Below, piece by piece: positions 26,594-41,071 of a stretch of 64,000 nucleotides of DNA (positions are counted from its first letter, which is position 1; each line of letters opens with the position of its first letter). The notes under the pieces were generated by a model. That model did not search any database. It worked only from the letters and a program-made list of their open reading frames with translations, and was not told the origin of the DNA. A program made the translations under genes and the position numbers. The stretch is from Qipengyuania proteolytica (GTDB lineage Bacteria > Pseudomonadota > Alphaproteobacteria > Sphingomonadales > Sphingomonadaceae): NCBI RefSeq assembly GCF_019711565.1, contig NZ_JAIGNN010000001.1:868001-932000 (forward strand), given 5' to 3'.

Positions 26594-27526
26594 ATGACCG
26601 CCACCGACACTTCCCGCGACGCAGCGGCATGCCAGATCCAGCGGGCGATTGCCGATGAATCCCTGCGTCCGACGATCGCAGGATTCTTCGACGAAGCGAC
26701 GAATACCGTCACATATGTCGTGAGCGATCCCGAAAGCCGCGAGGCGGCGATCATCGACTCGGTCCTCGATTTCGAGGCAGCCTCCGGTCGCACGTCGAAC
26801 GGTTCGGCTGATCTCATTCTGGAATACATAGATAAGCAAAAGCTGAAAGTGACATGGCTTATCGAGACCCATGCCCATGCCGACCACATTTCCGCGGCAC
26901 CCTACCTGCAGGAAAAGGTCGGCGGGAAGCTGGCGATCGGCAAAGACATCGTGCGAGTGCAGGAAGTCTTCGGCAAGCTGTTCAACGCCGGGACCGATTT
27001 CGAACGTGACGGTTCGCAATTCGATCACCTGTTCGCGGATGGCGAAACCTTCTCGATCGGCAAGCTCGAAGGGATTGCGCTGCACGTCCCCGGCCACACG
27101 CCGGCGGACATGGCTTTCATCATCGGCGACGCGGCCTTTGTCGGCGACACGATCTTCATGCCCGATTTCGGCACTGCGCGGGCGGATTTTCCGGGCGGCG
27201 ACGCAGGGCAATTGTTCCGTTCGATCCGCCGGCTCCTGTCCCTCCCGGACGAAACGCGGCTGTTCCTGTGCCACGACTACAAGGCGCCGGGGCGTGACGA
27301 GTACGCCTGGGAAACGACCGTGAAGCAGCAGCGCGAGCACAATGTGCATGTGAAGGACGGCGTGACCGAGGCCGAATTCGTGGAAATGCGGACGAACCGC
27401 GACAAGACCCTGGCCATGCCGACGCTCATCATGCCGAGCGTACAGGTCAACATCCGCGGCGGTCGCCTGCCCGAGCCGGAGGATAACGGCGTATCCTACA
27501 TCAAGATACCGGTGAACGCCGTATGA
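26594..27526 (+). CDS. MBL-fold persulfide-dioxygenase-like protein (Blh C-domain type)
   Basis: A 310-residue metallo-beta-lactamase-fold protein. The metal motif is His93-Ala-His95-Ala-Asp97-His98 (ETHAHADHISA), with later ligands in HVPGHTPADM, GDTIFMPDFGTARADFPGGDA and LFLCHDYKAPGR. This pattern is that of ETHE1/Blh persulfide dioxygenases, which convert glutathione persulfide to sulfite and GSH using Fe(II) and O2. In classical Blh proteins the MBL domain is fused to a DUF442 domain; here that domain is a separate gene at 28393. GGAGAGCG precedes the ATG. It overlaps the permease gene by four bases (ATGA). Confidence 0.88.
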   Translation: MTATDTSRDAAACQIQRAIADESLRPTIAGFFDEATNTVTYVVSDPESREAAIIDSVLDFEAASGRTSNGSADLILEYIDKQKLKVTWLIETHAHADHISAAPYLQEKVGGKLAIGKDIVRVQEVFGKLFNAGTDFERDGSQFDHLFADGETFSIGKLEGIALHVPGHTPADMAFIIGDAAFVGDTIFMPDFGTARADFPGGDAGQLFRSIRRLLSLPDETRLFLCHDYKAPGRDEYAWETTVKQQREHNVHVKDGVTEAEFVEMRTNRDKTLAMPTLIMPSVQVNIRGGRLPEPEDNGVSYIKIPVNAV

Positions 27527-27969
27527 TCCTGCCCGGTTTTCCTGATGCACAGCCGCTCGAGGGGCTGCTCGGCGGGCTGCTGATCGGCCTCTCGGCAGCG
27601 ATCATGCTGCTGGGGCTGGGGCGGATTGCCGGCGTCTCCGGCATGTTCGCACGCGCGACCACGATCGAGGACGGCAGCCCGCCCTGGCCCATCGCCGCCC
27701 TGTTTGTGGGCGGGCTGGTGCTCGGTGCGATCGTCTATCGCCTGGTCCTGGGCCCGGTCGAGGCGGCCTATCCGCCGGGCTGGGGCTGGTTGGCCGTGGG
27801 CGGTTTGCTGGTCGGTTTCGGCACGCGCCTAGGTTCGGGCTGCACCAGCGGCCACGGCGTCTGTGGCATGTCGCGCCTTTCGCCCCGTTCGCTCGTCGCG
27901 ACCGCGACCTTCATCCTGGCGGGCATGGCCACGGTGGCCGTCGTCAACATGCTCGGGGGAGGTTGGTGA
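27523..27969 (+). CDS. YeeE/YedE-family sulfur-compound permease, first half
   Basis: A 148-residue integral membrane protein with about four helices. It carries the family's glycine/cysteine motif GFGTRLGSGCTSGHGVCGMSRL (about 103-124), whose cysteines relay sulfur compounds in TsuA-type thiosulfate transporters. It is half the size of full YeeE and pairs with the next gene, which supplies the other half. The ATGA overlap with the MBL gene and TGATG junction with its partner show an operon. The likely cargo is thiosulfate, polysulfide or persulfide (inference). Confidence 0.85.
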   Translation: MILPGFPDAQPLEGLLGGLLIGLSAAIMLLGLGRIAGVSGMFARATTIEDGSPPWPIAALFVGGLVLGAIVYRLVLGPVEAAYPPGWGWLAVGGLLVGFGTRLGSGCTSGHGVCGMSRLSPRSLVATATFILAGMATVAVVNMLGGGW

Positions 27970-28379
27970 TGCGGCTGTTCCTTGCGCTTCTTTCTGGCGC
28001 CATCTTCGGCTTCGGCCTTGCGCTGTCCGGCATGATGGACCCGGGGCGCGTGCGCGGTTTCCTCGACGTCTTCGGGGCGTGGGACCCGACGCTCGCCTTC
28101 GTGATGGGCGGCGCGGTGCTGGTCATGGCGGTGACCTGGGTCGTCCAGCGCCGCATGACGCGGCCGGCCTTCGCGGTCGAATTCAACCTGCCCGGCACCC
28201 AGCTGCTCGATGCAAGGCTGATCGGCGGTTCGGCCATGTTCGGCGTCGGCTGGGGCCTGTCGGGCCTGTGTCCGGGGCCGGCAGTCGCCTCGCTGGCGAC
28301 CGCGTTCCTCCCTGCCGCGATTTTTGTCGGATCGATGACCGCCGGGATTTTCCTGCATCGCATCGTCACGCGGGGCTGA
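27969..28379 (+). CDS. YeeE/YedE-like (DUF6691) permease, second half
   Basis: A 136-residue membrane protein with about four helices. It has FGLALSGMMDPGRVRGFLDVFGAWDPTLA and FGVGWGLSGLCPGPA, the mirrored motif with its Cys that completes the pore of the half-size permease encoded upstream. The ATG shares its A with the preceding TGA stop (TGATG). Two-gene permeases of this kind are typically found beside Blh/persulfide dioxygenase genes and BigR-type repressors, as here. Confidence 0.87.
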   Translation: MRLFLALLSGAIFGFGLALSGMMDPGRVRGFLDVFGAWDPTLAFVMGGAVLVMAVTWVVQRRMTRPAFAVEFNLPGTQLLDARLIGGSAMFGVGWGLSGLCPGPAVASLATAFLPAAIFVGSMTAGIFLHRIVTRG

Positions 28380-28392
28380 AGGAGGCTGGTCC

Positions 28393-28725
28393 ATGCAAAT
28401 CGAGAAACTCTCCGATGCCCTGTCGGTAACCGGACAGGTCGATCCCGCTGAAACCGAGGCCATTGCGAAGCTCGGTTTCCGCTCCCTGATCTGCAATCGG
28501 CCGGATGGCGAGCAATCTGACCAGCCGAGTTGGAGCGCGGTTGAAGCTGCTGCGCGGAAAGCGGGCCTCGAAACGCGCCACATCCCGGTTGGTGGGGAAC
28601 TGACGATCGAGGACCAGACGGAGGTCTTCGCCGCCGCACTCGCGCAAATGCCAAAGCCGATCCTCGCCTTTTGCCGCACGGGCAACCGGTCGACACAATT
28701 GTACCGGGCGCAGGGAGAGGCCTGA
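28393..28725 (+). CDS. DUF442 / TIGR01244 sulfur-metabolism phosphatase-like protein
   Basis: A 110-residue protein of the DUF442 family, with LSVTGQVDPAETEAIAKLGFRSLICNRPDGE near the N-terminus. A phosphatase-like loop CRTGNRS starts at Cys94; the Arg is one residue closer than in the HCxxGxxR signature of tyrosine phosphatases. In Blh proteins this domain is fused N-terminally to the persulfide dioxygenase. Recent literature treats it as a sulfur-handling or rhodanese-like module; which activity applies is uncertain. GAAGGAGG precedes the ATG, and sqr starts one base after the stop codon. Confidence 0.87.
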   Translation: MQIEKLSDALSVTGQVDPAETEAIAKLGFRSLICNRPDGEQSDQPSWSAVEAAARKAGLETRHIPVGGELTIEDQTEVFAAALAQMPKPILAFCRTGNRSTQLYRAQGEA

Positions 28726-28726
28726 C

Positions 28727-29950
28727 ATGACGAATTCCCCGCACCACACCATCGTGATCGCGGGCGGCGGCTCGGCCGGGATAGCCACCGCCGCATCGCT
28801 GCTCCACCGCCGCGCCGGGCTCGACATCGCGGTGATCGAACCGCGGGAGCAGCATTACTACCAGCCCGGCTGGACGATGGTCGGCGGCGGGGTTTTCGAC
28901 AAGGAAGAAACCTGTCGCAGCGAAGCTTCGGTCATGCCCGAGGCGGTGACCTGGATCAAAACGGCCGTGTCGGGCTTCGATCCCGATGCCAAGACGGTGG
29001 CTCTGCAGGATGGCAGCACCGTAACCTACGACCTGCTGATCGTCGCCATGGGCAACCGCCTGGCGTGGGAAGAGATCGCGGGGCTGGAGGAAACGCTCGG
29101 CCGCAACGGCGTCACCTCGAACTATCGCTACGATCTCGCGCCCTACACCTGGGAGCTGGTCCAGAGGACACGCACGGGCCGCGCTCTGTTCACCCAGCCG
29201 CCGATGCCGATCAAATGCGCCGGCGCGCCGCAGAAGGCGATGTACCTGTCCTGCTCCGAATGGGAGACACGCGGGGTCCTCAAGGATATCGAGGTCGAAT
29301 TTCACAACCAGGGAGGCGTGCTGTTCGGGGTCGAGGCCTATGTGCCGGCATTGATGGAGTATGTCGCGCGTTACGGCATCCAGCTCAGGCTCGGCTCGAA
29401 CCTCGTGCGGGTCGACGGCGCGGCGCAGAAAGCCTGGTTCGCCACGGCCGACGGCGAGGTCGAGCGAAGCTTCGACATGCTGCACGTCTGCCCGCCGCAG
29501 AAGGGTCATGCGGTCGTCGCGGCGAGCCCGCTCGCCAACGAGGCTGGCTATGCCGACGTCGATCAGCACAGCCTGCGCCATGTGAAATATCCCGAGGTCT
29601 TCGCGCTCGGCGATTGCAGCAGCACGCCCAATGCCAAGACCATGGCCGCCGCGCGCAAGCAGGCGCCCGTGGCGGCGATCAATGTGCTTGCAGTGCTGGA
29701 TGGCAAGGCACCCACCGCCGCATACGACGGCTACGGAAGTTGCCCGCTGACGGTGGAGAACGGCAAGATCGTGCTGGCCGAGTTCACCTATGGCGGAAAG
29801 CTGGCACCGAGTTTCCCGAGCTGGCTGATCGACGGCACCAAGCCCTCGCGGCTGGCGTGGAAGCTCAAGGCGGATGTGCTGCCCGCGATCTACTGGAACG
29901 CGATGCTCAAGGGCCGCGAATGGCTCGCCAAGCCAACCGGAATGGCCTGA
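28727..29950 (+). CDS. sqr: Sulfide:quinone oxidoreductase, SQOR (type II)-like
   Basis: A 407-residue FAD enzyme that oxidises sulfide to a persulfide and reduces quinone. It has a Rossmann loop IVIAGGGSAGIATAASLL, a second site LLIVAMGNRLAW, and the two catalytic cysteines found in mitochondrial SQOR: Cys164 in KCAGAPQKAMYLSC and Cys296 in ALGDCSSTPNAKT. The C-terminal amphipathic region (LAWKLKADVLPAIYWNAMLKGREW) would dock it on the membrane. It feeds persulfide to the MBL dioxygenase encoded at 26594 and electrons to the quinone pool used by the bd oxidase downstream. Confidence 0.93.
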   Translation: MTNSPHHTIVIAGGGSAGIATAASLLHRRAGLDIAVIEPREQHYYQPGWTMVGGGVFDKEETCRSEASVMPEAVTWIKTAVSGFDPDAKTVALQDGSTVTYDLLIVAMGNRLAWEEIAGLEETLGRNGVTSNYRYDLAPYTWELVQRTRTGRALFTQPPMPIKCAGAPQKAMYLSCSEWETRGVLKDIEVEFHNQGGVLFGVEAYVPALMEYVARYGIQLRLGSNLVRVDGAAQKAWFATADGEVERSFDMLHVCPPQKGHAVVAASPLANEAGYADVDQHSLRHVKYPEVFALGDCSSTPNAKTMAAARKQAPVAAINVLAVLDGKAPTAAYDGYGSCPLTVENGKIVLAEFTYGGKLAPSFPSWLIDGTKPSRLAWKLKADVLPAIYWNAMLKGREWLAKPTGMA

Positions 29951-29957
29951 AAACGAA

Positions 29958-31712
29958 ATGCTTCAACGCTATTTCCCGATCCTCGAATGGGGCCGGACCT
30001 ACAACGGCACGGTTCTGACCAACGATCTTGTTGCGGCGGTGATCGTGACAATCATGCTGATCCCGCAGAGCCTCGCCTATGCGCTGCTCGCTGGACTTCC
30101 GCCCGTCGTCGGTCTGTATGCCTCGATCCTTCCGCTGGTTGCCTATGCCATTTTCGGGACGAGCCGGACGCTCGCGGTCGGGCCGGTCGCGGTGGTCAGC
30201 CTGATGACGGCGAGCGCAGCCGGAGCGGTCGCGGCGCAGGGGACGCCCGCATATCTCGAAGCGGCCATCACGCTGGCCGCGCTATCGGGCATCATGCTGG
30301 CAGTGCTGGGCCTGCTGCGGGCCGGATTCCTCGCCAATCTGCTCTCCCATCCGGTGGTCAGCGGCTTCATCACCGCGAGCGGCCTGCTGATCGCGACCAG
30401 CCAGCTCAAGCACATCCTCGGGATCAAGGCGGGCGGGGACAACTGGCCGGAAATGCTGGGTTCGCTCGCCACGTCGATCGGCGACACGAACCCGTGGACG
30501 CTGGCCATCGGCGTGCCTGCGACGCTGTTCCTCTTCTGGGTGCGCGTGGGAGCGAAGCCCGCCCTCCAGCGCCTCGGCCTCAAGCCCCGCGCCGCCGATA
30601 TCGTCGCCAAGGCGGGACCGGTCGTGGCCGTGGCTCTGACGATCCTCGCCGCGATCGCCTTCGATCTCGAAGGACGCGGTGTCGCGCTGGTGGGCGAGGT
30701 GCCGCAGGGCCTGCCGCCCTTTGCGGTCCCCTCGACCGATCTCGACCTGATCCGGCAGCTGTGGGTGCCGGCGCTGCTGATCTCGATCATCGGCTTCGTC
30801 GAAAGCGTCTCGGTCGCGCGTACGCTCGCCGCCAAGCGGCGCCAGCGGATTTCGCCTGACCAGGAACTCGTCGGCCTCGGCGCGGCCAACATCGCCAGCG
30901 CCTTTTCCGGCGGCTATCCGGTAACCGGTGGCTTCGCCCGTTCGGCGGTCAATTTCGACGCCGGGGCGGAGACGCCTGCGGCAGGGGCCTATACCGCCGT
31001 CGGGATCGCCTTGGCCTCGCTCTTCCTGACCCCGCTGCTCTACTCGCTCCCCATCGCGACGCTGGCTGCCACCATCATCGTCGCGGTGCTGAGCCTCGTC
31101 GACCTCAAGACACCGGGTCAGCTTTGGCGCTATTCCAAGGCCGACTTCGCCGCCCATATCGCGACCATCGGCATCACCCTGCTGGCGGGCGTGGAGCTGG
31201 GCGTGATCGCGGGCGTCGCGGTCGGCCTGCTGCTCTACCTCTGGGCCGCCTCGCGCCCGCATGCCGCGATTGTCGGCCGCGTGCCGGAGACCGAGCACTT
31301 CCGCAACATCGCGCGCCACAAGGTCTTCACCGCGCCGCACGTCCTCTCGATCCGGATCGACGAAAGCCTCACCTACCTCAACGCCCACTGGCTCGAGGAA
31401 TTCGTGATGGAGGAGGTCGCCGAGCATCCCGAGCTGCGCCACGTCATCCTCATGTGCAGCGCCGTCAACGCGATCGACGCTTCGGGCCTCGAGAGCCTCG
31501 AGGCGATCAACCACCGTCTCGCGGACGGCGGGATCAAGCTCCACCTCTCGGAGGTGAAGGGTCCGGTCATGGACCGGCTCGATCGGACGCACTTCGTCGA
31601 GGACCTGGGCGGCAAGGTCTACCTGTCACAGGCCAAGGCGTTCGCCGACGCGCTGGCCGACAACGGCGACGCCGACAGGCAGCCCGACGACCTTGCCCGC
31701 GGCATGATTTGA
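29958..31712 (+). CDS. SulP-family anion transporter with STAS domain
   Basis: A 584-residue SLC26/SulP protein with 12-14 membrane helices. The signature VAAVIVTIMLIPQSLAYALLAGLPPVVGLYAS covers residues 25-56, and the C-terminal STAS domain (about 440-555) has VLSIRIDESLTYLNAHWLEE and VILMCSAVNAIDASGLESL. Substrates include sulfate, bicarbonate or dicarboxylates. Its place directly after sqr suggests export or exchange of sulfite/sulfate, the products of sulfide oxidation (inference). The ATG at 29958, seven bases after the sqr stop codon, is used. Confidence 0.9.
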   Translation: MLQRYFPILEWGRTYNGTVLTNDLVAAVIVTIMLIPQSLAYALLAGLPPVVGLYASILPLVAYAIFGTSRTLAVGPVAVVSLMTASAAGAVAAQGTPAYLEAAITLAALSGIMLAVLGLLRAGFLANLLSHPVVSGFITASGLLIATSQLKHILGIKAGGDNWPEMLGSLATSIGDTNPWTLAIGVPATLFLFWVRVGAKPALQRLGLKPRAADIVAKAGPVVAVALTILAAIAFDLEGRGVALVGEVPQGLPPFAVPSTDLDLIRQLWVPALLISIIGFVESVSVARTLAAKRRQRISPDQELVGLGAANIASAFSGGYPVTGGFARSAVNFDAGAETPAAGAYTAVGIALASLFLTPLLYSLPIATLAATIIVAVLSLVDLKTPGQLWRYSKADFAAHIATIGITLLAGVELGVIAGVAVGLLLYLWAASRPHAAIVGRVPETEHFRNIARHKVFTAPHVLSIRIDESLTYLNAHWLEEFVMEEVAEHPELRHVILMCSAVNAIDASGLESLEAINHRLADGGIKLHLSEVKGPVMDRLDRTHFVEDLGGKVYLSQAKAFADALADNGDADRQPDDLARGMI

Positions 31713-31784
31713 TGCACCTTCATGCAACAAATCGTGCGCACAAGGCATTCGCCGAGAACGCGCTGAAACTGTAGGACCGTCGGC

Positions 31785-33245
31785 ATGTTCGACCATCTCG
31801 ACGCGCTCGTCCTGGCCCGCATCCAGTTTGCCTTCACGGTCAGCTTCCACTTCATCTTCCCGTCCTTCTCGATCGGTCTGGCGAGCTATCTTGCGGTGCT
31901 TGAGGGGTTGTGGCTGAAAACCGGCAAGCCGATCTATCTCGACCTGTTCAAATACTGGCTGAAGATCTTCGCCATCGCCTTCGCGATGGGCGTGGTGAGC
32001 GGGATCGTCATGTCCTACCAGTTCGGCACCAACTGGTCGGTGTTCTCCGACGTCGCCGGGCCGGTGATCGGACCGCTGATGGCCTATGAGGTGCTGACTG
32101 CCTTCTTCCTCGAAGCGGGGTTTCTCGGTGTCATGCTGTTCGGTATGGAGCGGGTGGGCAGGAAGCTGCATTTCGCTGCCACGCTGATGGTGGCGCTCGG
32201 CACGTTCGTCAGCGCCTTCTGGATCCTTTCGGTCAATAGCTGGATGCAGACGCCGACCGGATACGAGATCGCCGCGAATGGACAATATATGCCGGGCGAG
32301 AGCTGGCTGGCGATCATCTTCAACCCGAGCTTCCCCTATCGCTTGGTGCACACGGTGCTGGCAGCCTATCTCACCACCGCCTTCGTCGTCGGCGGGGTCG
32401 GGGCCTGGCACCTGCTCAAGGACCGCGCGAACCTGCATGCACGCAAGATGTTCTCGATGGCGATGTGGATGGCCGCGCTGGTCGTGCCGGTGCAGATTTT
32501 CGCGGGTGACATGCACGGGCTCAACACGCTCGAGCACCAGCCGCAGAAGGTCATGGCGATGGAGGGGCATTACGAAAGCCACCCCGACGGCGCGCCGCTC
32601 TACCTGTTCGGCATCCCGAACGACAAGGAGCAGCGGCTCGACTTTGCGGTCGGGATCCCCAAGCTGTCGAGCCTGATCCTGAAGCACGATCTCGACGCGC
32701 CGCTCGCAGGCCTGGACACGATTCCCGACGACGAGCAGCCGCCGGTCGGCATCGTGTTCTGGTCGTTCCGCATCATGGTCGGCATCGGCTTCGCAATGCT
32801 GGGCGTCGGGGCGTGGAGCCTGTTCGCGCGATACCGCAAGAAACTCTTCGACTGGAGCTGGCTGCACCGTGCGGCGGTGGCAATGGGGCCGAGTGGGTTC
32901 GTCGCCGTCATTGCCGGCTGGATCACGACCGAAGTCGGCCGCCAGCCTTATGTCATCTACAACCTGCTGCGCACCGCCGACGCGGCCAGTCCGCTCGACG
33001 CGCCGGCTGTCGCCACGTCGCTGATTGCCTTCGTGCTCGTCTACTTCGCCGTCTTCGGGGCGGGCGTGTGGTATATCCTGCACCTCATGCACAATCCGCC
33101 GCATGCCGGTGAATACGGCGTCAAGCGCGGCGACAAGGGGCCGATCCGGACAGCCGGGATCACCCCGGGGCCGACACAGGATCCGACCGACGAGACCAGC
33201 CGCGATCTGGCCGGATCCAAGCAGGAGCCGGAGGACGCACCATGA
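31785..33245 (+). CDS. cydA: Cytochrome bd quinol oxidase subunit I, CIO-like
   Basis: A 486-residue subunit I. His22 in FAFTVSFHFIFP corresponds to a heme b595 ligand; further heme-ligand regions are LVHTVLAAYLTTAFVVGG and MAMWMAALVVPVQIFAGDMHG. The quinol loop is short, as in cyanide-insensitive oxidases (CioA) of Pseudomonas and many alphaproteobacteria, compared with about 520 residues for E. coli CydA. bd oxidases keep working in sulfide, which poisons heme-copper oxidases; this is established. Location right after sqr/SulP therefore makes physiological sense. It overlaps cydB by four bases. Confidence 0.95.
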   Translation: MFDHLDALVLARIQFAFTVSFHFIFPSFSIGLASYLAVLEGLWLKTGKPIYLDLFKYWLKIFAIAFAMGVVSGIVMSYQFGTNWSVFSDVAGPVIGPLMAYEVLTAFFLEAGFLGVMLFGMERVGRKLHFAATLMVALGTFVSAFWILSVNSWMQTPTGYEIAANGQYMPGESWLAIIFNPSFPYRLVHTVLAAYLTTAFVVGGVGAWHLLKDRANLHARKMFSMAMWMAALVVPVQIFAGDMHGLNTLEHQPQKVMAMEGHYESHPDGAPLYLFGIPNDKEQRLDFAVGIPKLSSLILKHDLDAPLAGLDTIPDDEQPPVGIVFWSFRIMVGIGFAMLGVGAWSLFARYRKKLFDWSWLHRAAVAMGPSGFVAVIAGWITTEVGRQPYVIYNLLRTADAASPLDAPAVATSLIAFVLVYFAVFGAGVWYILHLMHNPPHAGEYGVKRGDKGPIRTAGITPGPTQDPTDETSRDLAGSKQEPEDAP

Positions 33246-34243
33246 CGTTCGACCTGACCACGATCTGGGCGTTCATCATCGCCTTCGCCGTCTTCGCCTA
33301 TGTGGTGATGGACGGGTTCGACCTCGGCATCGGCATCCTCTTCCCGACCTTCGATCCGGGGCCAGAGCGCGACCGCGCGATGAACTCCATCGCGCCGGTG
33401 TGGGACGGGAACGAGACCTGGCTGGTCTTGGGCGGGGGCGGTTTGTTCGCTGCCTTTCCGCTGGCCTATGCCGTGATCCTGCCCGCGACCTATCCGCTCG
33501 TCATCGCGATGTTGCTGGGCCTCGTCTTCCGTGGAGTCGCCTTCGAATACCGCTGGCGCGATCCGGGGCACCGGCGCCTGTGGGACGCGGCCTTCACCGG
33601 CGGGTCCTTCGTGGCGGCAATGGCGCAAGGGATGACGCTCGGCGCGTTGCTGCAGGGGATCGAGGTCACCGACCGCGCCTATTCGGGCAGCTGGTTCGAC
33701 TGGCTCACGCCCTACACGCTCATGACCGGAGTAGGCACGGTCGCCGGCTACGCGCTGCTCGGCGCGACCTGGCTGGTCTGGAAGCTCGATGGCGAGGGGC
33801 AGGCGCATGCCCGCCAGCTCGGCATCAGGGCAGCCTGGGCGACGCTGCTGCTGATGGGGGCTGTCAGCCTCTACAACATCTTCCTCAACGCCGACTATGC
33901 CGCCCGCTGGCTGAGCGCGCCGGAGATCTATTTCGCCGCGCCCGTGCCCATCGTGACCGCGATCGTCGCATTGTCGCTGCTGCGCGCGCTCAAGGCCGAA
34001 CGCAACAGCAAGCCCTTCTGGCTGTCCATCGCTCTGTTCTTCTTCGGGATGGCGGGCCTCGGCGTGACCATGTGGCCCTATGTCGTCCCGCCGGGCATCA
34101 CCATCTGGGACGCCGCCGCACCCGAGCGCAGCCAGGTGTTCATGCTGGTCGGCGTCGCGATCACCATGCCGCTCATCATCGCCTATACCGCCTGGGCCTA
34201 TTGGGTCTTCCGCGGCAAGGTGGGCCACGAGGGCTATCATTGA
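33242..34243 (+). CDS. cydB: Cytochrome bd quinol oxidase subunit II
   Basis: A 333-residue polytopic subunit with about eight helices. N-terminal FVVMDGFDLGIGIL-type sequence (YVVMDGFDLGIGILFPTF) and VWDGNETWLVLGGGGLFAAFP are the family markers; the acidic residues there belong to the proton path. It pairs with the CIO-like subunit I encoded upstream (ATGA overlap). A DUF2474 micro-gene starts at its stop codon (TGATG). Length is slightly below E. coli CydB (379), as usual for CioB. Confidence 0.95.
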   Translation: MTFDLTTIWAFIIAFAVFAYVVMDGFDLGIGILFPTFDPGPERDRAMNSIAPVWDGNETWLVLGGGGLFAAFPLAYAVILPATYPLVIAMLLGLVFRGVAFEYRWRDPGHRRLWDAAFTGGSFVAAMAQGMTLGALLQGIEVTDRAYSGSWFDWLTPYTLMTGVGTVAGYALLGATWLVWKLDGEGQAHARQLGIRAAWATLLLMGAVSLYNIFLNADYAARWLSAPEIYFAAPVPIVTAIVALSLLRALKAERNSKPFWLSIALFFFGMAGLGVTMWPYVVPPGITIWDAAAPERSQVFMLVGVAITMPLIIAYTAWAYWVFRGKVGHEGYH

Positions 34244-34365
34244 TGGCCGCCGAAACGCCCGGGCCGCTGTGGAAGCGGCTCGCCTGGATGGCAGCGATCT
34301 GGGCGGCGAGCGTGGCCGTGCTGGGTGCGGTCGGCGGTCTTATCCGCTGGTGGCTGATGCCTTGA
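34243..34365 (+). CDS. DUF2474 micro-protein, bd-oxidase accessory peptide
   Basis: A 40-residue single-helix peptide: a polar start (MAAETPGPLWKRLAWM) then AAIWAASVAVLGAVGGLIRWW. Its ATG shares the last A of the cydB stop codon (TGATG). DUF2474 peptides sit after cioAB-type genes and are thought to play the role of CydX/CbdX, which bind subunit I and stabilise the heme pocket; the role is inferred from the family. It is too short for many gene callers. The convergent decarboxylase-like gene ends ten bases beyond its stop codon. Confidence 0.85.
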   Translation: MAAETPGPLWKRLAWMAAIWAASVAVLGAVGGLIRWWLMP

Positions 34366-34375
34366 CGTCGCTGCG

Positions 34376-35323
34376 TCAGGTCGGCGCGACCCAGATCTGC
34401 TGACCCAGCTTCTGTTCGAAATCGAACTCGACCCAGCTGGCTTCGCCCGCGTCCTGCCAGCCGCTCTCGACCCCGAGCGCTTCCGCAAAGGGATGGCTGT
34501 CGTAGCTGGTGATGCGGACGTCGTAATGGTCCTGCGTGATCCCTGACCGGCGCATCTTGAGCACGCTCGCTTCGGATTCGACGACGCCCTGATAGCAGGC
34601 GAGATGCGGGTCGGGCGCATGCGGGAACTGCTTGAGGAATGCCATGGTCACGTTGCCCCCGGCAAGCACGGTGTTCACATGCGCGGCGATGTTGGCGAGC
34701 TCCCCGACGACGCGTTGCGCCATGTGTTCCGCAAAGGCTTCGAGACTGCCGAGGATGCCATGCTTGCGCTCGCTCTTCTGGCGCGGGCGCGCTTCGAAGA
34801 TCGGGGCGAGCTGCGCCTTCGCATCGTGACCGAACGTCTCGACTACCTGGGTGGAGACGGTGAAGTCGCGCGCCGCCCCGGGTTCGGAAGTCTGCGGGCT
34901 GAAGTCGAACCTGCCGATCTGCTTGGGAAAACCCCAGACCTCGCGTCCGCTGGCCAGCGCTTCGCCCGAGTCCACGAAGAGCCAGCTTGGAATGAACCGC
35001 AGGTCGGTCGGCTTGCCCCCGACCTTCCGGGCGAGAATCCACAGCGCGGTATCGATCTCGCTGGTGTATCCCTTGCCACCCTCCGGCCCGACGGCTCGCA
35101 GCTCGGCGATTTCGGCAATGGCGAAGAACAGGCGGTCGCCCAGCGCCTCGTACCGCACCTCGCCGCCCGTCGGCTCGGCGAAGAGCTGGTCGAGCCAAGC
35201 CTGGATGCGCTGTTTCGAAGCAGGCACGCAGAAATTGTGCATTACCACGCCGTGCGCGGTGACCGGGAACAGCGCCGTGTAGAGATTGGCGTTGACGACA
35301 AGCTTGGGCAGGGTCGGCATCAT
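34376..35323 (-). CDS. Acetoacetate decarboxylase-like family protein
   Basis: A 315-residue protein of the ADC superfamily. The hallmark SGREVWGFPKQIGRFDF (about residues 118-135) contains the WGFPK stretch around the Schiff-base lysine of acetoacetate decarboxylase. The protein is longer than ADC (about 245) and the surrounding sequence is divergent, so decarboxylation of acetoacetate is not assured; ADC-like enzymes with other keto-acid reactions exist. Two consecutive ATGs (35323 and 35320) follow GGAGG; the second has better spacing. It is ten bases downstream of the FAD oxidoreductase and probably its operon partner. Confidence 0.75.
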   Translation of the reverse strand: MMPTLPKLVVNANLYTALFPVTAHGVVMHNFCVPASKQRIQAWLDQLFAEPTGGEVRYEALGDRLFFAIAEIAELRAVGPEGGKGYTSEIDTALWILARKVGGKPTDLRFIPSWLFVDSGEALASGREVWGFPKQIGRFDFSPQTSEPGAARDFTVSTQVVETFGHDAKAQLAPIFEARPRQKSERKHGILGSLEAFAEHMAQRVVGELANIAAHVNTVLAGGNVTMAFLKQFPHAPDPHLACYQGVVESEASVLKMRRSGITQDHYDVRITSYDSHPFAEALGVESGWQDAGEASWVEFDFEQKLGQQIWVAPT

Positions 35324-35333
35324 CGTCCTCCGG

Positions 35334-37460
35334 TCATTCGTTCAGCGGTGGCAGCTTGCCGACCATGGCGAGCGCGCAGCGATAGCCGCTCCGCGCGGCG
35401 GACTCGGCGCAGCCCGAATTCAGACCGTTGCGGGTCCAGTCGCCGGCCGGGAACAGGTTGGTGAAGCCGGATTCATTGGCGTCCATGCGGTTGTAGACGC
35501 TGTTCTTGGGCGACTGGACGTAGAGGTCGGACGGCGCGCAGTTGGCCTTCACGAATTGCTGCGCGAAAGCACCGCCGTCGGCCCCCGGATCGGGGCAGTG
35601 AAGCAGGCCGGGCGCGAAGCCGAATTCGCTGTTGGCGCTGCCCGCTTCGGTCCAGTACCGCCCCACATTGTCCTGCAGCCACTTCTTCGCGTCTTCGCGC
35701 GCGATCCGGTCCGCCTCGGCCGGGGGCGCGTCGCCGGGTATCTGGCCGCACCAATAGGCGATGGCCAGCGGGCGTTCCTCGCCGGTCCAGTTCTCGCGCG
35801 AGAGCAGGTGCGACATGTCCGACCAGGTGCTGAACGGCTGGTCGGCGCCGGTCAGCGTTCGTCCGGCCGCCTGCGAGCCCAGGTCTTCCATCGTGCGGTT
35901 GAACCAGACCTGCATGGCGCAGGTCCGGGTGAGGGTGAGCGAGTCGAACATCGGGCCCCATTTCGAATGCGGCAGCCGCTCGGGCAGTTGCGAGCAGACC
36001 TGCTTCAAACCGCCTACCGAGATGCCGATGACGATCTCGTCGAAATCCTCGCCCTTTTTCAGCGTGAAGGGCCGGTCGCCGGCACCGGGGGCGCCGACAT
36101 GGTCGGCCTCGAAATTGCGGCCTGCGGTCTTGAGCGCGGCACCATCCTTCAGCTGGTCCCACAGCGGCTCGTTGGGCCAGCCCTCGAGCGTGTTGTCGCC
36201 CCAGCCGGGCAGCGGGAATTCGACGAGCGGCCGGTAGCCCGCCTGCGGATCGGCCAGCTCGGCCTGCCTCACCATGTCGATCGAAGCGATCTCGTCCAGC
36301 ACCGGGTTGGGATTGAGCGCGGTCACACGGGTGAAGTATTCGAACTTCACCCCGCGCTGCTTGAGCGCGAGATAGAGCGGGGCGATCACCACGTCGCCCA
36401 TCGCACCGCGCATCTTCCAGAAGAAGTGCCCCTTGTAGCTGATCATCAGCATGAACGAACGCAGCGCGGTGCCGGCAGCGAAGCTGCGCATCGCGGTGTC
36501 ACCGCCGTTGCCGAAGCCGAAGACGTAATCGTACATGGTCGCGACCGGCGCCCAGTCGATCAGCAGTTGCGCGCGCATGTGGGGATCGCCCCATTCGGGG
36601 TAGCGCTCCGCGATGACGACCGCGTTCTGGTAGAGCCACTCGCTGAACTCGTACTTGTCGAGGCAGTCGTAGCCTTCCTGGAGGACGTTATCCGCCGCCA
36701 CCCCGTGCAGGATGGCCTGCACCATGTAGGCCGAGCGGATGAAGCGCGACATCATGATGGTCATGTTCTTGTCGACTTCGGACTTCGACAGCTCCTTCAT
36801 CCGCTTCTCGATCATATGGATCACGTCGCGCATGATCGCTTGAGCCGCCAGCGCCTCGAGATGTCGCTCGACGTCCTTGGCCAGCTTCTTCAGCAGGTCG
36901 AGCGCGCCGTGCAGGAGACCGCTATGGGGCACGCTCGGCGGCGCCCCCGTGGGAGGCGCGAAGAGATTGTGCCGTGCATCGGGCGAGAAGTTGATCAGCG
37001 CTTCGACCAGCTTGGTGATCGCCACCTCGACCGAGGGGATGCCGAGATCGTCGCCGGGGACCGAGTCGTTGGGCTCGAAATTGAGATACCAGGTGAGATC
37101 GGGATATTGCTCGAAACTGTTGTCGACCAGCGCGATGGTGTCCTCTGGCGAGAACGCCTGCCACACGGTCCGATTGGGGTGGCCAGCGGGACGATCCAGC
37201 ACGTCGTAGGCGCGGCGCAGCAGGTCGAAGGACTGGTCGTAGAAGCCAGCGAAGATGTGGAGCCCGTGCTCGATAATCCGGTTGCCATAGCCCGGCCGCA
37301 TGTCGTGCCCGCTGGCGCATTTGCCGCCCAGCCGCCAGCCTTGCTGGTAGACCGTGATCTCGAACTTTTCGTCCCAGCCGGGCTGCTCGGTCAGGTAGAA
37401 AGCGGCGGACAGGGCCCCCACTCCGCCGCCCAGCACCGCGACGCGCTTCTTGGAACCCAT
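35334..37460 (-). CDS. Large FAD/NAD(P)-binding oxidoreductase (phytoene-desaturase/amine-oxidase type)
   Basis: A 708-residue flavoprotein. The N-terminal dinucleotide fold is VAVLGGGVGALSAAFYL, then the second half of the motif VYQQGWRLGGKCASG, both typical of amine-oxidase/carotenoid-desaturase flavoproteins. The C-terminal FAD-binding segment is NLFPAGDWTRNGLNSGCAESAARSGYRCA. The central region is longer than in phytoene desaturases, and no substrate can be read from it. It precedes an ADC-like gene by ten bases on the same strand, suggesting a two-enzyme oxidation/decarboxylation pathway (inference). The TIR gene is divergent from it. Confidence 0.82.
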   Translation of the reverse strand: MGSKKRVAVLGGGVGALSAAFYLTEQPGWDEKFEITVYQQGWRLGGKCASGHDMRPGYGNRIIEHGLHIFAGFYDQSFDLLRRAYDVLDRPAGHPNRTVWQAFSPEDTIALVDNSFEQYPDLTWYLNFEPNDSVPGDDLGIPSVEVAITKLVEALINFSPDARHNLFAPPTGAPPSVPHSGLLHGALDLLKKLAKDVERHLEALAAQAIMRDVIHMIEKRMKELSKSEVDKNMTIMMSRFIRSAYMVQAILHGVAADNVLQEGYDCLDKYEFSEWLYQNAVVIAERYPEWGDPHMRAQLLIDWAPVATMYDYVFGFGNGGDTAMRSFAAGTALRSFMLMISYKGHFFWKMRGAMGDVVIAPLYLALKQRGVKFEYFTRVTALNPNPVLDEIASIDMVRQAELADPQAGYRPLVEFPLPGWGDNTLEGWPNEPLWDQLKDGAALKTAGRNFEADHVGAPGAGDRPFTLKKGEDFDEIVIGISVGGLKQVCSQLPERLPHSKWGPMFDSLTLTRTCAMQVWFNRTMEDLGSQAAGRTLTGADQPFSTWSDMSHLLSRENWTGEERPLAIAYWCGQIPGDAPPAEADRIAREDAKKWLQDNVGRYWTEAGSANSEFGFAPGLLHCPDPGADGGAFAQQFVKANCAPSDLYVQSPKNSVYNRMDANESGFTNLFPAGDWTRNGLNSGCAESAARSGYRCALAMVGKLPPLNE

Positions 37461-37603
37461 GGTTACCTCCCCCGCAATTTCCCTTAGAATACGTTGCGCT
37501 TCGAGATCGGGGAAGGCAAGGTATCCCTAAGGGTCATCGGGGTGTCATACTGTCGGGTAGGACATTCGAGTTCGGGTCGCGCCTGTCATCACGGGGGAGA
37601 GAC

Positions 37604-40600
37604 GTGCCTGACATCTTCATCTCCTACAGCCATGCCGACCGCGACCATGCGCGGCGCTTTGCCGAGCGGCTGCGCGCGACCGGCCTGGATGTGTGGTGGG
37701 ACGATGCATTGCGCGGCGGGCAAGCCTTCGACCACGAGATCGAGGAGGCCTTGCGCGGTGCCCGGGCGGTCATCGTGCTCTGGTCGTCGCAATCGGTCAC
37801 TTCGCGCTGGGTAAGGTCCGAGGCGGCGCTGGCGCAGGATCTGGGCACTGTGCTGCCGGTGACGATCGAGCCCTGCAGCCTGCCGGTGATGTTCACGCTG
37901 ACGCATACCGTCGACATGGCCGGCTGGGACGGCAGCGACTCTCATCCTGCCTGGCAATCCTTCCTCGACGATCTCGATCACGTGCTCGCCGGCGAAGAGG
38001 CCGCAGCCCAGGCTGCACCCGCTCCGCCCCCACCTGCGGCGGGAACGCGGCGTGAAGTCGCGGTCCTGAGCATGGTGCCCGTGATGGACGGCGCCGCGCA
38101 TGCCGCGATCGATCCGGAGGACTGGCAGGACTTGCTCGCCGGCTTTCAGAAAGACGCTGCGGCGGTGATCGAAGCGGAGGGGGGCGACCTGCGCCCCTCG
38201 GTCGGCGGTGCGATCGTGGGCTTCTTCGGCAGCGGACGCGTGCATGAAGACGATGCCCTGCGGGCAACGCGCGCTGCTGCCGACATCCGGACCCGCGCGG
38301 CAAAGGAGGGCAACGGCCTCACTATCCAGGCGGGCGTCGAGGCCGGGCTGCTCGTGCTGCGCGGTGGCGAGGCGTTCGGCCCCGTTATCGAAACCGCGGA
38401 AAGGCTGCGGTTGCACGCAGAGCCGGGCACGATCCTCGTCGGCCCGGTCGCGGCTCACCAGATTGCCGGATATGCCGAACTCGAAGCCGCCTCGGCAACG
38501 GCGTTCCGGCTGAAGGAATTGCAGAGCGACCGCTCGCGCTTCGACATCTCGCGCCTGCGCGGCCTGTCGCGCTTCGTCGGGCGCGAGAACGAGATGACCG
38601 CGCTCGAGCGCGGGCTGGAGCGCGCCTCGCTCGACGGCCTGCAGGTGATCGGCGTGGTCGGCGATGCGGGATCGGGCAAGAGCCGCCTGTGCTTCGAATT
38701 CATGACCAGCTGCCGCGCGCAGGGCGTGCTGGTGGCCGAAGGGCGCGCGACCAGCGCCAGCGGGATCAGCCCCTATGCCCCGATCGTCGGCCTGTTCCAT
38801 TCTTTGTTCGGCGTGCTGCCCGACGAGACGCCGGAGGAGAAGCGGCGCAAGATCACTGCCTGGATCGAGGCGCTCGATCCCGATCTCGTGAACGAACTGC
38901 CCTCGCTCTTCGCCTTCATGCGCGTGTCGGACCCCGCCGTGCCGCCGTTGCCGATGGACGCCGGCACCCTGCAACGGCGCGTCCTTGCCATATTCAGGCA
39001 CGCTCTCGCCAAGCTGGGACGCGAGAGTTCGATCGTGGTCTATCTCGAGGACCTCCACTGGCTCGACGATGCCAGCGGCCAGTTCCTCGAGCGCCTGCTC
39101 GATGCCGAGGACATTGCACCCGTTCTGGTACTCGCCAGCTATCGCCCAGAATTCGAGGCGCGCTGGCTGGGATCGTCGCGCTGCCGCCAGCTGGCCTTGC
39201 GCCCGCTCGGCTCGGGTGCCATCGACGCACTGCTCTCCGACCTGCTCGGCATGGACGAGAGCGTCGCCGCGCTGGGCGCCAAGCTGCAGGACGCATCGGG
39301 CGGCAACCCCTTCTTCCTCGAGGAAATCGTCCGCAGCCTCGCGCAGGCGGGCCAGCTGACGGGCGAGCGCGGGGCCTATGTCTTCGCCGGCTCGGTCGAC
39401 GCCATCGAGATCCCCGGGACCGTCCGCGCGCTGCTGACGATGCGCATCGCGCGCCTGCCCGAGATGCAGCGGCGCCTGCTCCAGATCGCCGCCATCGCCG
39501 GCAAGCAGTTTTCCGAACCGCTGGTGGCCGAAGTCAGCCGCGTTTCGGAAAGCGAAGCGGCCGCAGCCCTTTCCGCGCTGGTTCGCCTCGGCTTCACCTC
39601 GGAACTCAGCCTCGTCCCCTATGCGCGCTACACCTTCGTTCATCCGCTCACGCTGGAAATGGCGGCGGCGAGCCTGCTCAAGGCCGAGGCGCGCGACTTC
39701 CACCGCGAGGTGGCGCGGGTCATCGAGCGCCGGCACGCGGACCGGATCGAGGAATTCGCACCCGAGCTGGCGCGCCATTACCAGGAGGCGGGCGATGCGC
39801 TGGTCGCGGCCGAGTGGCACCGGCGCGCGGCGGAGTGGGTCAGCCATACCGATTTCGGCATGGCCAACGGCCACTGGCTCGCCATCCGCGAACTGGTGCG
39901 CGATCTCGACGAGGAACCGGCAGCGATCAGGCTGCACCTGTCGGCCTGCATCCAGATGCTCTATTCCGCCCACCAGACTGCCTTGTCGATCGAAGAGGCG
40001 CAGGCCATCCTGGCGGAAGGCGATGCCCTGGCGGACCGCACCGGCAATCCCACCGCGCGTCTTATGCTGTCTTCGCTGTATGCTCGGGTGATCGGTGGTA
40101 CCGGAGATGCGCAAGGCTATCTCGAACTGGCGCGTCGCAATCATGCGTTGGCAGCGAGTTCGGGCAGCCTCGCCGCCGAGGCATCGACCCACCTGATCCT
40201 GATGGATGCTCTGGCAGTTTCGTCGCATGTTTCCGATGCACTCGACCTTGCCGAGCAAGGCGTCGAGAAATTCGCCGGGCTGGACCGGGATTCCTGGCCG
40301 ACGCCCGGCAATCCGGTCTCGTTTTGCCATTTCCAGGCGGCGGTAAACCTGATGTGGTCGGGCCGCGTGAAGGAAGCATTGGAGCGGTTCGACCTGTGCT
40401 GCCGGATGGGGGAAAGCGACGGTACGCCCGAAGTCCTCGCCTGGACCCACTGGATGGCGGGGATCACCCAGAGCCTTATCGGAAATCCCGAGGCAGCGCA
40501 CCGACATGCCGATGCGCTCGCGGCGATCAGCGACAAGGCTGGTTCGAGCCAGTTGGCGGCCTTTGCACACACAGCCCGGGCCCGCGCGCAACTTGCCGAA

Positions 40601-41071
40601 GGAGACGCCGAAGCGGCCCTGGCCAGCGCCCGGCAGGCGGTCGCGATCTTCAAAGCGGGTGAACGCCTGTGGTTGGGCATCGGCGAGGGGCTTGTGGCCG
40701 AGGCCTTGCTCGAGGGCGGACACCTGGCGGAGGCAATCGATGCCGGGCGTACCGCTGTCCGCACATGCCGTGCCCATTCGACCAGGCAGTCCGAGGTCGT
40801 CTGTCTCGGCATACTCGCGCGTGCGCGGATGCGGCATGACGGAGTCGCTTCGATTGAGGAGACGCGGGACCTGCTGTTGCGGGCCGAGCAGCTGGTCGAA
40901 GAGAGCGGGGCACGCTTCCAGCAGGCCATGCTCAAGGAATGGCGCGCCGAGCTGTCTGACCTCGAAGGGAATCGCGATGCCGCGGCCCGCCTGCGCGAGG
41001 AAGCGGCCGACCTGCACGAGACCTTCGGCCACAAGGGCCGGGCCCGCGAACTGAGAATGCAGGCGGCCTAG
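37604..41071 (+). CDS. TIR / degenerate nucleotide-cyclase / AAA-type ATPase / TPR-like fusion protein
   Basis: A 1155-residue cytoplasmic multidomain protein, GTG start behind GGGGGAGA. Residues 1-130 are a TIR domain (DIFISYSHADRDHARRFAERL; putative NADase Glu73 in SRWVRSE). Residues 150-315 align with class III cyclase domains (HEDDALRATRAAADIR is intact), but both metal-binding Asp positions are replaced (Val158 and Gly202), so cyclase activity is unlikely. Residues 325-600 are a STAND-like ATPase with Walker A GDAGSGKSR (353-361) and Walker B VVYLEDLHWLDD (about 478-489). The rest is helical TPR-like repeats. The cyclase-ATPase-TPR core resembles known signalling ATPases; the added TIR suggests ligand-triggered NAD+ cleavage or assembly (inference). 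It is monocistronic. Confidence 0.85.
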   Translation: MPDIFISYSHADRDHARRFAERLRATGLDVWWDDALRGGQAFDHEIEEALRGARAVIVLWSSQSVTSRWVRSEAALAQDLGTVLPVTIEPCSLPVMFTLTHTVDMAGWDGSDSHPAWQSFLDDLDHVLAGEEAAAQAAPAPPPPAAGTRREVAVLSMVPVMDGAAHAAIDPEDWQDLLAGFQKDAAAVIEAEGGDLRPSVGGAIVGFFGSGRVHEDDALRATRAAADIRTRAAKEGNGLTIQAGVEAGLLVLRGGEAFGPVIETAERLRLHAEPGTILVGPVAAHQIAGYAELEAASATAFRLKELQSDRSRFDISRLRGLSRFVGRENEMTALERGLERASLDGLQVIGVVGDAGSGKSRLCFEFMTSCRAQGVLVAEGRATSASGISPYAPIVGLFHSLFGVLPDETPEEKRRKITAWIEALDPDLVNELPSLFAFMRVSDPAVPPLPMDAGTLQRRVLAIFRHALAKLGRESSIVVYLEDLHWLDDASGQFLERLLDAEDIAPVLVLASYRPEFEARWLGSSRCRQLALRPLGSGAIDALLSDLLGMDESVAALGAKLQDASGGNPFFLEEIVRSLAQAGQLTGERGAYVFAGSVDAIEIPGTVRALLTMRIARLPEMQRRLLQIAAIAGKQFSEPLVAEVSRVSESEAAAALSALVRLGFTSELSLVPYARYTFVHPLTLEMAAASLLKAEARDFHREVARVIERRHADRIEEFAPELARHYQEAGDALVAAEWHRRAAEWVSHTDFGMANGHWLAIRELVRDLDEEPAAIRLHLSACIQMLYSAHQTALSIEEAQAILAEGDALADRTGNPTARLMLSSLYARVIGGTGDAQGYLELARRNHALAASSGSLAAEASTHLILMDALAVSSHVSDALDLAEQGVEKFAGLDRDSWPTPGNPVSFCHFQAAVNLMWSGRVKEALERFDLCCRMGESDGTPEVLAWTHWMAGITQSLIGNPEAAHRHADALAAISDKAGSSQLAAFAHTARARAQLAEGDAEAALASARQAVAIFKAGERLWLGIGEGLVAEALLEGGHLAEAIDAGRTAVRTCRAHSTRQSEVVCLGILARARMRHDGVASIEETRDLLLRAEQLVEESGARFQQAMLKEWRAELSDLEGNRDAAARLREEAADLHETFGHKGRARELRMQAA

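What the first reader, a model, noticed from the sequence alone, without database searches (positions are those of the whole stretch)
37604..41071. TIR domain fused to a catalytically dead cyclase domain, a STAND-like ATPase and helical repeats
Seen: TIR with putative catalytic Glu73; cyclase-homology domain with the usual C-terminal HEDDALRA helix but Val158 and Gly202 in place of both metal-binding Asp residues; intact Walker A and B; long repeat tail. Cyclase-ATPase-TPR signalling ATPases are common; TIR-NADases are established effectors in antiphage and signalling systems. Inference: the cyclase module now only binds a nucleotide or acts as an assembly scaffold, and the repeats sense a trigger that lets the ATPase cluster the TIR domains. 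It stands alone in the genome neighbourhood, which would suit a single-gene defence or cell-death switch.
Basis: partly seen in the sequence, partly recalled or inferred. Interest (0 to 1): 0.75.

Follow-up and report, generated by a model that had tools for sequence, protein, structure and literature searches.

The report
TIR–dead-cyclase signalling ATPase with partners
A bacterial signalling ATPase has a TIR domain on its front end and a cyclase domain that lost its active site; relatives suggest that the TIR took over as output domain, and that the protein belongs with a membrane protein and a pair of metabolic genes rather than acting alone.

Summary
The 1155-aa ORF at 37604-41071(+) is TIR–cyclase homology domain (CHD)–AAA_16/STAND ATPase–TPR; the CHD keeps the cyclase fold but lacks both metal aspartates. 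Of 143 CHD-ATPase proteins compared, 9 of 9 with a TIR lack both; 126 of 134 without keep both. The TIR glutamate is kept in 9 of 9. The ATPase tree rejects one TIR clade (p 8e-6); the shorter CHD tree does not (p 0.31), so TIR joined at least two ATPase lineages but the cyclase may have died once or more. "Stands alone" is wrong: the gene is divergent from a flavoenzyme/acetoacetate-decarboxylase-like gene set in 3 of 3 close relatives, and a putative SLOG–SLATT membrane protein occurs in 27 of 27 TIR-positive genomes (13 known beforehand) and 0 of 17 TIR-negative congeners; in this genome it is unlinked. Best reading: a STAND switch whose output passed from cyclic nucleotide to an NAD-derived signal, the dead cyclase kept as scaffold, a SLOG–SLATT channel as probable receiver. 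Single-gene phage defence is possible but has no positive support. Activity, trigger and receiver are inferred.

The parts
37604..41071 (+). TIR–pseudo-cyclase–STAND ATPase–TPR protein, 1155 aa, GTG start
37613..37927 (+). TIR domain, residues 4-108 (TIR_2)
   Evidence: PDB TIR relatives (3h16, 7uwg, 8g83 and others) aligned up to E73
37820..37822 (+). codon of E73, the position of the catalytic Glu of TIR NADases (S-x-W-V-R-S-E)
   Evidence: that this Glu is catalytic in NADase TIRs is recalled
37988..38041 (+). Ala/Pro-rich flexible linker, about residues 129-146
   Evidence: pLDDT under 50 at 132-141 in the full-length model; sequence
38042..38533 (+). class III cyclase homology domain without active site, residues 147-310
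38075..38077 (+). V158 codon, in place of the first metal Asp
38207..38209 (+). G202 codon, in place of the second metal Asp
38570..39130 (+). AAA_16 / STAND ATPase core, residues 323-509
   Evidence: Foldseek top hit STAND-TPR protein 6mfv
38660..38683 (+). Walker A GDAGSGKS, residues 353-360
   Evidence: invariant G356, G358, K359 in 7 TIR-CHD proteins
39035..39052 (+). Walker B VVYLED, residues 478-483
   Evidence: invariant D483 in 7 TIR-CHD proteins
39680..41068 (+). TPR-like helical repeats, about residues 693-1155
   Evidence: secondary structure of the full-length model; weak TPR_12/TPR_2
35334..37460 (-). flavoenzyme, 708 aa (NAD_binding_8; weak HpnE/desaturase-like match), divergent neighbour
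   Evidence: homologue near the TIR-CHD gene in G209 and G549
34376..35323 (-). acetoacetate-decarboxylase-like protein, 315 aa, partner of the flavoenzyme (fused to it in L275)
37461..37603 (.). 143-bp divergent intergenic region between flavoenzyme and TIR gene
   Evidence: coordinates

Best explanation
A STAND-type signalling ATPase whose output domain was exchanged. Its closest ATPase relatives are zinc-ribbon–cyclase–ATPase–TPR proteins with intact cyclases, so the ancestor probably made a cyclic nucleotide (inferred from the ATPase tree). Now a TIR stands in front, both metal aspartates of the cyclase are gone, and the cyclase fold stays (shown). Mechanism, inferred: the TPR tail senses a trigger; ATP binding lets the ATPase oligomerise; the dead cyclase domains, whose active relatives work as dimers, pair up and bring the TIR domains into the arrangement in which E73 can cleave NAD+ and release an ADP-ribose-type signal, with or without NAD+ depletion. 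The most likely receiver is the putative SLOG–SLATT membrane protein that accompanies this TIR family (co-occurrence shown; binding and channel function inferred). The divergent flavoenzyme/ADC-like genes belong to the same functional unit, as source of the trigger or as target of control (linkage shown, role unknown).
For: Architecture and models. TIR fusion against cyclase state: 9 of 9 TIR proteins lack both Asp, 126 of 134 others keep both (Fisher 5e-10, kinship not corrected). TIR on at least two ATPase lineages: one clade of all nine rejected, p 8e-6; without L019 p 2.4e-5. Active-site columns lost and framework columns kept. Nearest intact-cyclase relatives by ATPase: L003, L004, L005. 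Partners: flavoenzyme and ADC-like genes divergent from the gene in 3 of 3 clade-A loci. Qingshengfaniella: a flavoenzyme homologue followed by a zinc-ribbon cyclase-ATPase with both Asp (Asp read by eye). SLOG–SLATT-like protein in 27 of 27 TIR+ and 0 of 17 TIR- genomes; 14 of 14 among TIR+ genomes not looked at before (Fisher 4e-9); within 10 kb of a TIR gene in 19 of 27 (hand count from the coordinates).
Against: No enzymatic data. In a tree of the CHD alone (166 columns, metal columns masked) one TIR clade is not rejected (p 0.31 with, 0.13 without L019) and the query does not group with L003-L005, so a single TIR–dead-CHD block that later joined different ATPases is not excluded. SLOG and SLATT assignments rest on weak or sub-cut-off matches, and no structure was predicted for that protein. 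Its gene in this genome is far away (C1:1491402), and the genome has a second TIR protein that could be its real partner. On a moaA tree of 24 rows TIR presence changes 4 times, but only 2 independent pairs lie on strongly supported branches. TIR-CHD and SLOG–SLATT genes lie within 10 kb of each other in only 3 of 9 TIR-CHD genomes (one of the nine is on a 4.3-kb contig).
Confidence: 0.48

Rival explanations
1. Single-gene antiphage or cell-suicide switch: the TIR depletes NAD+ by itself when the repeats sense a phage.
For: TIR matches models of defence-system TIRs (SAVED_TIR, Aga_TIR, bSEFIR); STAND+TPR layout with partial structural hits to RPP1, CED-4 and Avs3 (TM-scores low); patchy distribution: 2 of 60 genomes of the genus, its own included, at 36% identity between the two.
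Against: Conserved partner genes; no defence-type Pfam family among 10 neighbouring ORFs; no match in 50,697 phage records and none covering 80% of it on 72,556 plasmids.
Confidence: 0.2
2. The dead cyclase domain is a ligand sensor: it still binds a nucleotide (cAMP, cGMP, ATP or a TIR product) without turning it over and sets the threshold of the TIR.
For: Fold kept; inactive cyclases in conflict systems were proposed to bind nucleotides or act as dominant-negative regulators (PMC7159879, passages).
Against: The lost columns include the two metal Asp and a neighbouring Phe, replaced by different residues in most proteins, which looks like released constraint rather than a conserved new pocket.
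Confidence: 0.18
3. The TIR is a non-enzymatic assembly or docking domain and the protein works by protein contacts, like a transcriptional or metabolic regulator.
For: The same N-terminal position holds DNA-binding or activator domains (BTAD, winged helix) in other relatives with degenerate cyclases; the gene lies beside metabolic genes.
Against: The motif S-x-W-V-R-[AST]-E with its Glu is kept in 9 of 9 TIR-CHD proteins; co-occurrence with a nucleotide-sensor-like membrane protein.
Confidence: 0.12
4. Two unrelated facts: the TIR protein is an accessory gene at a variable locus, and the SLOG–SLATT protein serves the other TIR proteins (TIR–TolB–TPR) only.
For: The stretch between 27.5 and 41.1 kb is arranged differently in 10 of 24 congeners with a matched moaA; own SLOG–SLATT gene unlinked.
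Against: TIR-CHD within 10 kb of the SLOG–SLATT gene in G549, G015 and G166, and of the flavoenzyme/ADC-like genes in 3 of 3 clade-A genomes.
Confidence: 0.15

Closest known systems
TOMM system kinase/cyclase fusion protein (NCBIfam TIGR03903) and zinc-ribbon cyclase–AAA_16–TPR proteins
   Same: Collinear from the cyclase domain to near the C-terminus (residues 147-1103; L003 and L005 34-35% identity over residues 147 to 1150-1153).
   Different: Kinase or zinc ribbon replaced by a TIR; both metal Asp lost; 190 bits against a cut-off of 706.
Thoeris (ThsB TIR + ThsA with a STALD domain)
   Same: TIR protein with a putative SLOG-type partner; the TIR matches ThsB_TIR weakly (23.9 bits, cut-off 21.2).
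   Different: TIR is joined to a STAND/TPR module; the putative receiver has three to four hydrophobic segments with SLATT-like hits, not SIR2; the curated Thoeris model ThcB4 is not reached. Thoeris logic from passages of PMC12578639.
TIR + SLATT neighbourhoods in firmicute phages and GTPase-centred conflict systems
   Same: TIR gene near a SLATT membrane gene; SLATT predicted to be an ADPr-derivative-regulated effector (PMC9503650, passages; PMC7159879, passages).
   Different: Here the membrane protein has an N-terminal SLOG-like part and up to two TM hairpins, and the TIR is on a sensor ATPase or a TolB–TPR protein.
NLR/STAND receptors with an N-terminal TIR (RPP1) and bacterial Avs
   Same: Effector domain–STAND ATPase–repeat layout; partial Foldseek hits 6mfv, 7dfv, 4m9s, 8dgc.
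   Different: A cyclase fold sits between TIR and ATPase; no NACHT or Avs family match to the query.
Inactive cyclases in MoxR-vWA conflict systems
   Same: Catalytically inactive cyclase domains kept in modular conflict-type proteins (PMC7159879, passages).
   Different: Those are fused to vWA components; here the dead domain lies between a TIR and a STAND ATPase and its loss goes with the TIR fusion.

Membership tests
TIR NADase / cADPR synthase | TIR domain with Glu in the W-x-x-x-E position | tested here: met
   E73 in the query and Glu in 9 of 9 TIR-CHD proteins
TIR NADase / cADPR synthase | NAD+ cleavage or cyclisation | not testable with these tools
   needs an assay
Class III nucleotidyl cyclase | cyclase fold | tested here: met
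   Z 24.0, 163 aligned, rmsd 2.1 A
Class III nucleotidyl cyclase | two metal-binding Asp | tested here: not met
   V158 and G202; both columns are Asp in 126 of 134 non-TIR relatives
STAND / NLR-type switch | P-loop ATPase with Walker A/B followed by helical repeats | tested here: met
STAND / NLR-type switch | trigger-dependent oligomerisation | not testable with these tools
   no experiment
TIGR03903 TOMM kinase/cyclase fusion | curated cut-off and N-terminal kinase | tested here: not met
   190.4 bits against 705.75; no kinase in the Pfam scan
Thoeris | curated Thoeris TIR model at cut-off; SIR2-type ThsA | tested here: not met
   ThcB4 22.5 bits against 220; no SIR2 family among the hits of the putative receiver; the genome was not searched for ThsA
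SLOG–SLATT (partner protein) | SLATT 2TM domains and a SLOG domain at curated cut-offs | tested here: inconclusive
   SLATT_1 in 11 of 12 members at E up to 1, best 2.6e-9, the member shown in full being below the curated cut-off; YspA SLOG in 4 of 12 at E 0.14 or worse; 3-4 hydrophobic peaks in each of 14 proteins
PADLOC-listed defence systems | whole-protein match to a listed system protein | tested here: not met
   12 hits of the query, all confined to residues 1-129; partner: 1 of 12 members, E 0.0098

The most novel reading that the evidence does not exclude
A STAND signalling platform has changed its second-messenger currency from cyclic nucleotides to NAD-derived nucleotides, perhaps more than once, keeping the dead cyclase as the dimerising platform, and uses it with a SLOG–SLATT membrane receiver to serve a flavoenzyme/decarboxylase or isoprenoid gene module: TIR signalling in cell physiology or metabolism rather than in phage defence.
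Probability: 0.33. Interest if true: 0.85.

Novelty: new variant of a known kind. Interest (0 to 1): 0.68.

Why it matters
It gives natural before-and-after pairs for how a modular ATPase switch exchanges one second-messenger enzyme for another and what becomes of the displaced enzyme. The dead cyclase between TIR and ATPase makes a clean test of whether cyclase dimerisation can drive TIR activation. The phyletic link to a putative SLOG–SLATT membrane protein offers a testable TIR-to-channel pathway outside the Thoeris models tested here, and the flavoenzyme/ADC-like partners raise the question whether bacterial TIR signalling also serves metabolism.

Tried and rejected
Phage and plasmid origin: no phage match; 493 plasmid records match, none with one place covering 80% of the query. 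Viral contigs: the CHD-ATPase proteins from them that entered the alignment were all of the non-TIR kind with both Asp.

TIR-CHD outside the family: in the phylum sample no listed match outside the family reached the TIR part (all start at profile position 106 or later), and 19 loci taken from it had no TIR hit. In some searches only 2-3 candidates per genome were scored, so absence is not shown.

How often the cyclase died: on the ATPase tree one TIR clade is rejected, but on a tree of the CHD alone it is not (p 0.31 and 0.13; that tree needs 2 changes, run as a last control). I therefore claim TIR on at least two ATPase lineages, not two proven cyclase deaths, and lowered two odds slightly for it. 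A third ATPase lineage (L019) is marginal, p 0.044, on a long branch.

TIR tree: too short for firm placement; it holds 7 of the 9 TIR-CHD domains, because L051 and L052 fell out as duplicates of shorter loci that the script then skipped.

Independent-pairs test of TIR against dead cyclase: 3 pairs, too few for significance. Of 143 CHD rows, 138 entered the first tree; 48 chosen rows entered the second.

Non-TIR proteins that had lost at least one Asp: 8 of 134 and 4 of 18. Eight of these 12 carry DNA-binding or activator N-termini (BTAD or winged helix), two a zinc ribbon, one a SAM domain, one another CHD in front (labels of the last four partly by eye). One BTAD protein (L196) keeps both Asp. 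Rows with both Asp were not Pfam-scanned for BTAD, apart from L196, and the 'zf/other' labels are regular-expression labels.

Moving-gene test at moaA: shows a rearranged neighbourhood, not a clean empty site; inconclusive.

Literature: 10 searches; none of the titles and abstract starts listed describes a TIR–dead-cyclase–STAND protein. That is a statement about these listings only. Papers: passages of PMC7159879, PMC8195603, PMC9503650, PMC12578639, PMC13236601 and PMC2447327 (the last gave nothing useful); others seen as search listing only.
Full report
What is there. The ORF at 37604-41071(+) codes for 1155 residues without internal stop. It has a TIR domain (4-108), an Ala/Pro-rich linker, a class III cyclase homology domain (CHD, about 147-310), an AAA_16 ATPase (323-509) and a long helical repeat tail. 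Pfam does not detect the CHD, but the AlphaFold2 model of residues 1-325 (pLDDT 91.1) matches solved class III cyclases at Z up to 24.0 over 163 residues. The full-length model (pLDDT 92.8, pTM 0.80) has the STAND-TPR protein 6mfv as best Foldseek hit, followed by parts of RPP1, CED-4 and cyclases, with low whole-length TM-scores.

The cyclase is dead wherever a TIR was seen in front. I collected 143 proteins with CHD plus ATPase from samples of the genus, family, order and class, from named genome contigs and from viral contigs. All 9 with an N-terminal TIR lack both metal Asp; of 134 without, 126 keep both (Fisher 5e-10, kinship not corrected). The replacements differ in every case but one pair (V/G, N/E, A/S, R/H twice, S/H, E/P, R/G, L/N). 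Columns conserved in the relatives with both Asp split cleanly: the two Asp and a neighbouring Phe (94%) are absent in 9 of 9, whereas D170, E172, F208-G209, E215, A221, G244, A265 and A272 of the framework are kept in 9 of 9. The TIR Glu is kept in 9 of 9. The domain lost its active site, not its fold. In a further 18 loci from the phylum sample, none with a TIR, 14 keep both Asp.

How often. In a tree of the ATPase part (138 rows; 48 rows with bootstrap) the query, G209 and G549 (clade A) sit among zinc-ribbon proteins with intact cyclases (L003, L004, L005), five others (clade B) sit elsewhere, and L019 stands apart. A single TIR clade is rejected (p 8e-6; p 2.4e-5 without L019); L019 apart from clade A is only marginal (p 0.044). 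A last control tells against part of this: in a tree of the CHD alone, with the metal columns masked, TIR proteins need 2 changes, clade A and L019 form one strongly supported group with the query, and one clade of all TIR proteins is not rejected (p 0.31; without L019 p 0.13). So the TIR sits on at least two ATPase lineages, but whether the cyclase died in each or once, in a TIR–CHD block that then moved, is open. A similar decay is seen where a DNA-binding or activator domain is in front: 8 of the 9 such proteins that I scanned have lost at least one Asp, L196 being the exception. In G140 a CHD with both Asp (by eye) stands in front of a second CHD that lacks the first metal Asp. The common theme is that the front domain is the output and the inner cyclase domain becomes a structural part.

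It does not stand alone. The neighbour at 35334-37460(-) is a 708-aa flavoenzyme (NAD_binding_8, weakly HpnE-like) and the next, 34376-35323(-), an acetoacetate-decarboxylase-like protein. Homologues of both are divergent from the TIR-CHD gene in all three clade-A genomes (own, G209, G549); in G209 and G549 a further flavoenzyme (c28) stands directly next to the TIR gene. In L275 flavoenzyme and ADC-like domain are one protein. Homologues of the flavoenzyme recur near TIR genes of another architecture, TIR–TolB–TPR, in part of these loci with the ADC-like gene. In the genus, 17 of 60 genomes hold a flavoenzyme homologue (E up to 1e-20), 16 of them among the 20 genomes that I counted as TIR-positive (Fisher 5e-10; kinship not corrected; five genomes with only weak TIR matches were counted negative). 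In named plasmid records: Qingshengfaniella has a flavoenzyme homologue (in a 968-aa protein; no ADC hit) followed directly by a zinc-ribbon, intact-cyclase ATPase of this family. Azospirillum has flavoenzyme and ADC-like gene divergent from a protein with a kinase-like front (by eye) and a related ATPase. Rufibacter has the flavoenzyme (no ADC hit) divergent from a kinase-like (by eye), ATPase and C-terminal cyclase protein. Catenovulum has the pair without such a gene in the stretch shown. Clade B lies beside other isoprenoid-type genes: polyprenyl synthetase, a desaturase-like flavoenzyme and a GGR-like flavoenzyme, syntenic in 4 of 4 clade-B loci that could be read (the fifth contig is 4.3 kb).

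A candidate receiver. A 569-771-aa protein (cluster c2, mostly 600-667 aa) lies in 14 of the 26 neighbourhoods that I clustered, all of them chosen around TIR or flavoenzyme genes, including clade A (G549) and clade B (G015, G166). Its N-terminal half looks like a SLOG-type Rossmann domain (by eye; weak profile hits) and its C-terminal half has three to four hydrophobic segments with SLATT matches in 11 of 12 members (NCBIfam, E up to 1, best 2.6e-9), the member shown in full being below the curated cut-off. A profile search of 44 chosen genomes found it in 27 of 27 TIR-positive genomes (9 with TIR-CHD, 18 congeners with other TIR proteins) and in 0 of 17 congeners without any TIR match. Reserve: 13 of the 27 were already known to have it, since it was found there, and 11 of them gave sequences to the profile; of the 14 TIR-positive genomes not looked at before, 14 have it (14 of 14 against 0 of 17: Fisher 4e-9). 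The weakest of the 27 is G020 (2e-84, in part). The 17 are half of the 35 congeners without any TIR match, taken roughly in list order with some skipped, G235 being included because it has the flavoenzyme without a TIR. On a moaA tree (24 of 25 fetched loci) TIR presence changes 4 times and the protein goes with it in the 16 rows tested, though only 2 independent pairs lie on strongly supported branches. It is within 10 kb of a TIR gene in 19 of 27 (hand count from the coordinates). In this genome it is unlinked (C1:1491402-1493189), beside genes that read like yajC-secDF (by eye). In Novosphingobium sp. RL4 it lies directly beside a TIR-coding stretch, and in Caballeronia a DUF4231 homologue lies beside an annotated TIR gene. 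Published work predicts SLATT to be an ADPr-derivative-regulated membrane effector and YpsA-like SLOG domains to include sensors of cADPR (passages of PMC9503650, and PMC7159879).

How it most likely works. Shown: architecture, dead cyclase, kept TIR Glu, TIR on at least two ATPase lineages, conserved gene partners, co-occurrence. Inferred: the repeats sense a trigger; the ATPase oligomerises; the cyclase folds, dimeric in active class III cyclases (established knowledge), pair the TIR domains; the TIR makes an NAD-derived signal; the SLOG–SLATT protein responds at the membrane; the flavoenzyme/ADC-like genes supply or receive the regulation. I put about 0.48 on this chain as a whole.

Novelty. 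TIR-STAND receptors (RPP1 and kin), inactive cyclases in conflict systems and TIR–SLATT neighbours are each in print. The combination, with cyclase loss going with the TIR and a metabolic gene set as companion, did not show in the listings of the 10 literature searches named under Tried and rejected. I rate it a new variant of a known kind.

Noticed in passing
L166, L167, L168, L169, L172, L173 (IMG/VR contigs; L169 and L173 are one contig): Several contigs filed as viral carry two to four CHD–ATPase–TPR genes in tandem, with both cyclase Asp in every copy aligned and a zinc-ribbon label in all but one.
   Followed up: no
L030, L149, L152, L165, L193, L198, L246, L252: CHD–ATPase proteins with BTAD or winged-helix N-termini have lost one or both cyclase metal Asp (L196 keeps both): similar decay with a transcription-type output domain.
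   Followed up: partly
L284 6933-10940(-) (G140): A protein with a CHD that keeps both Asp (by eye) and a degenerate second CHD before a STAND ATPase lies between the flavoenzyme and the ADC-like gene.
   Followed up: partly
L255 10606-18000(+) (G209): Two tandem RTX (HemolysinCabind) proteins of 1242 and 1188 aa lie directly downstream of the TIR-CHD gene.
   Followed up: no
L117, L118, L022, L024: The same TIR domain is also fused to an FHA domain in proteins of about 300-350 aa: a third architecture for this TIR.
   Followed up: no
window 27550-41071: The gene at 26594-27526 is next to moaA in 10 of 24 congeners with matched moaA, but here about 13.6 kb (sulfate permease, cydAB, ADC-like, flavoenzyme, TIR gene and others) lie between the two.
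   Followed up: partly
window 37589-41032(-): A 1147-aa open frame runs antisense to almost the whole gene; codon-position GC marks it as a likely shadow of the + strand gene.
   Followed up: yes
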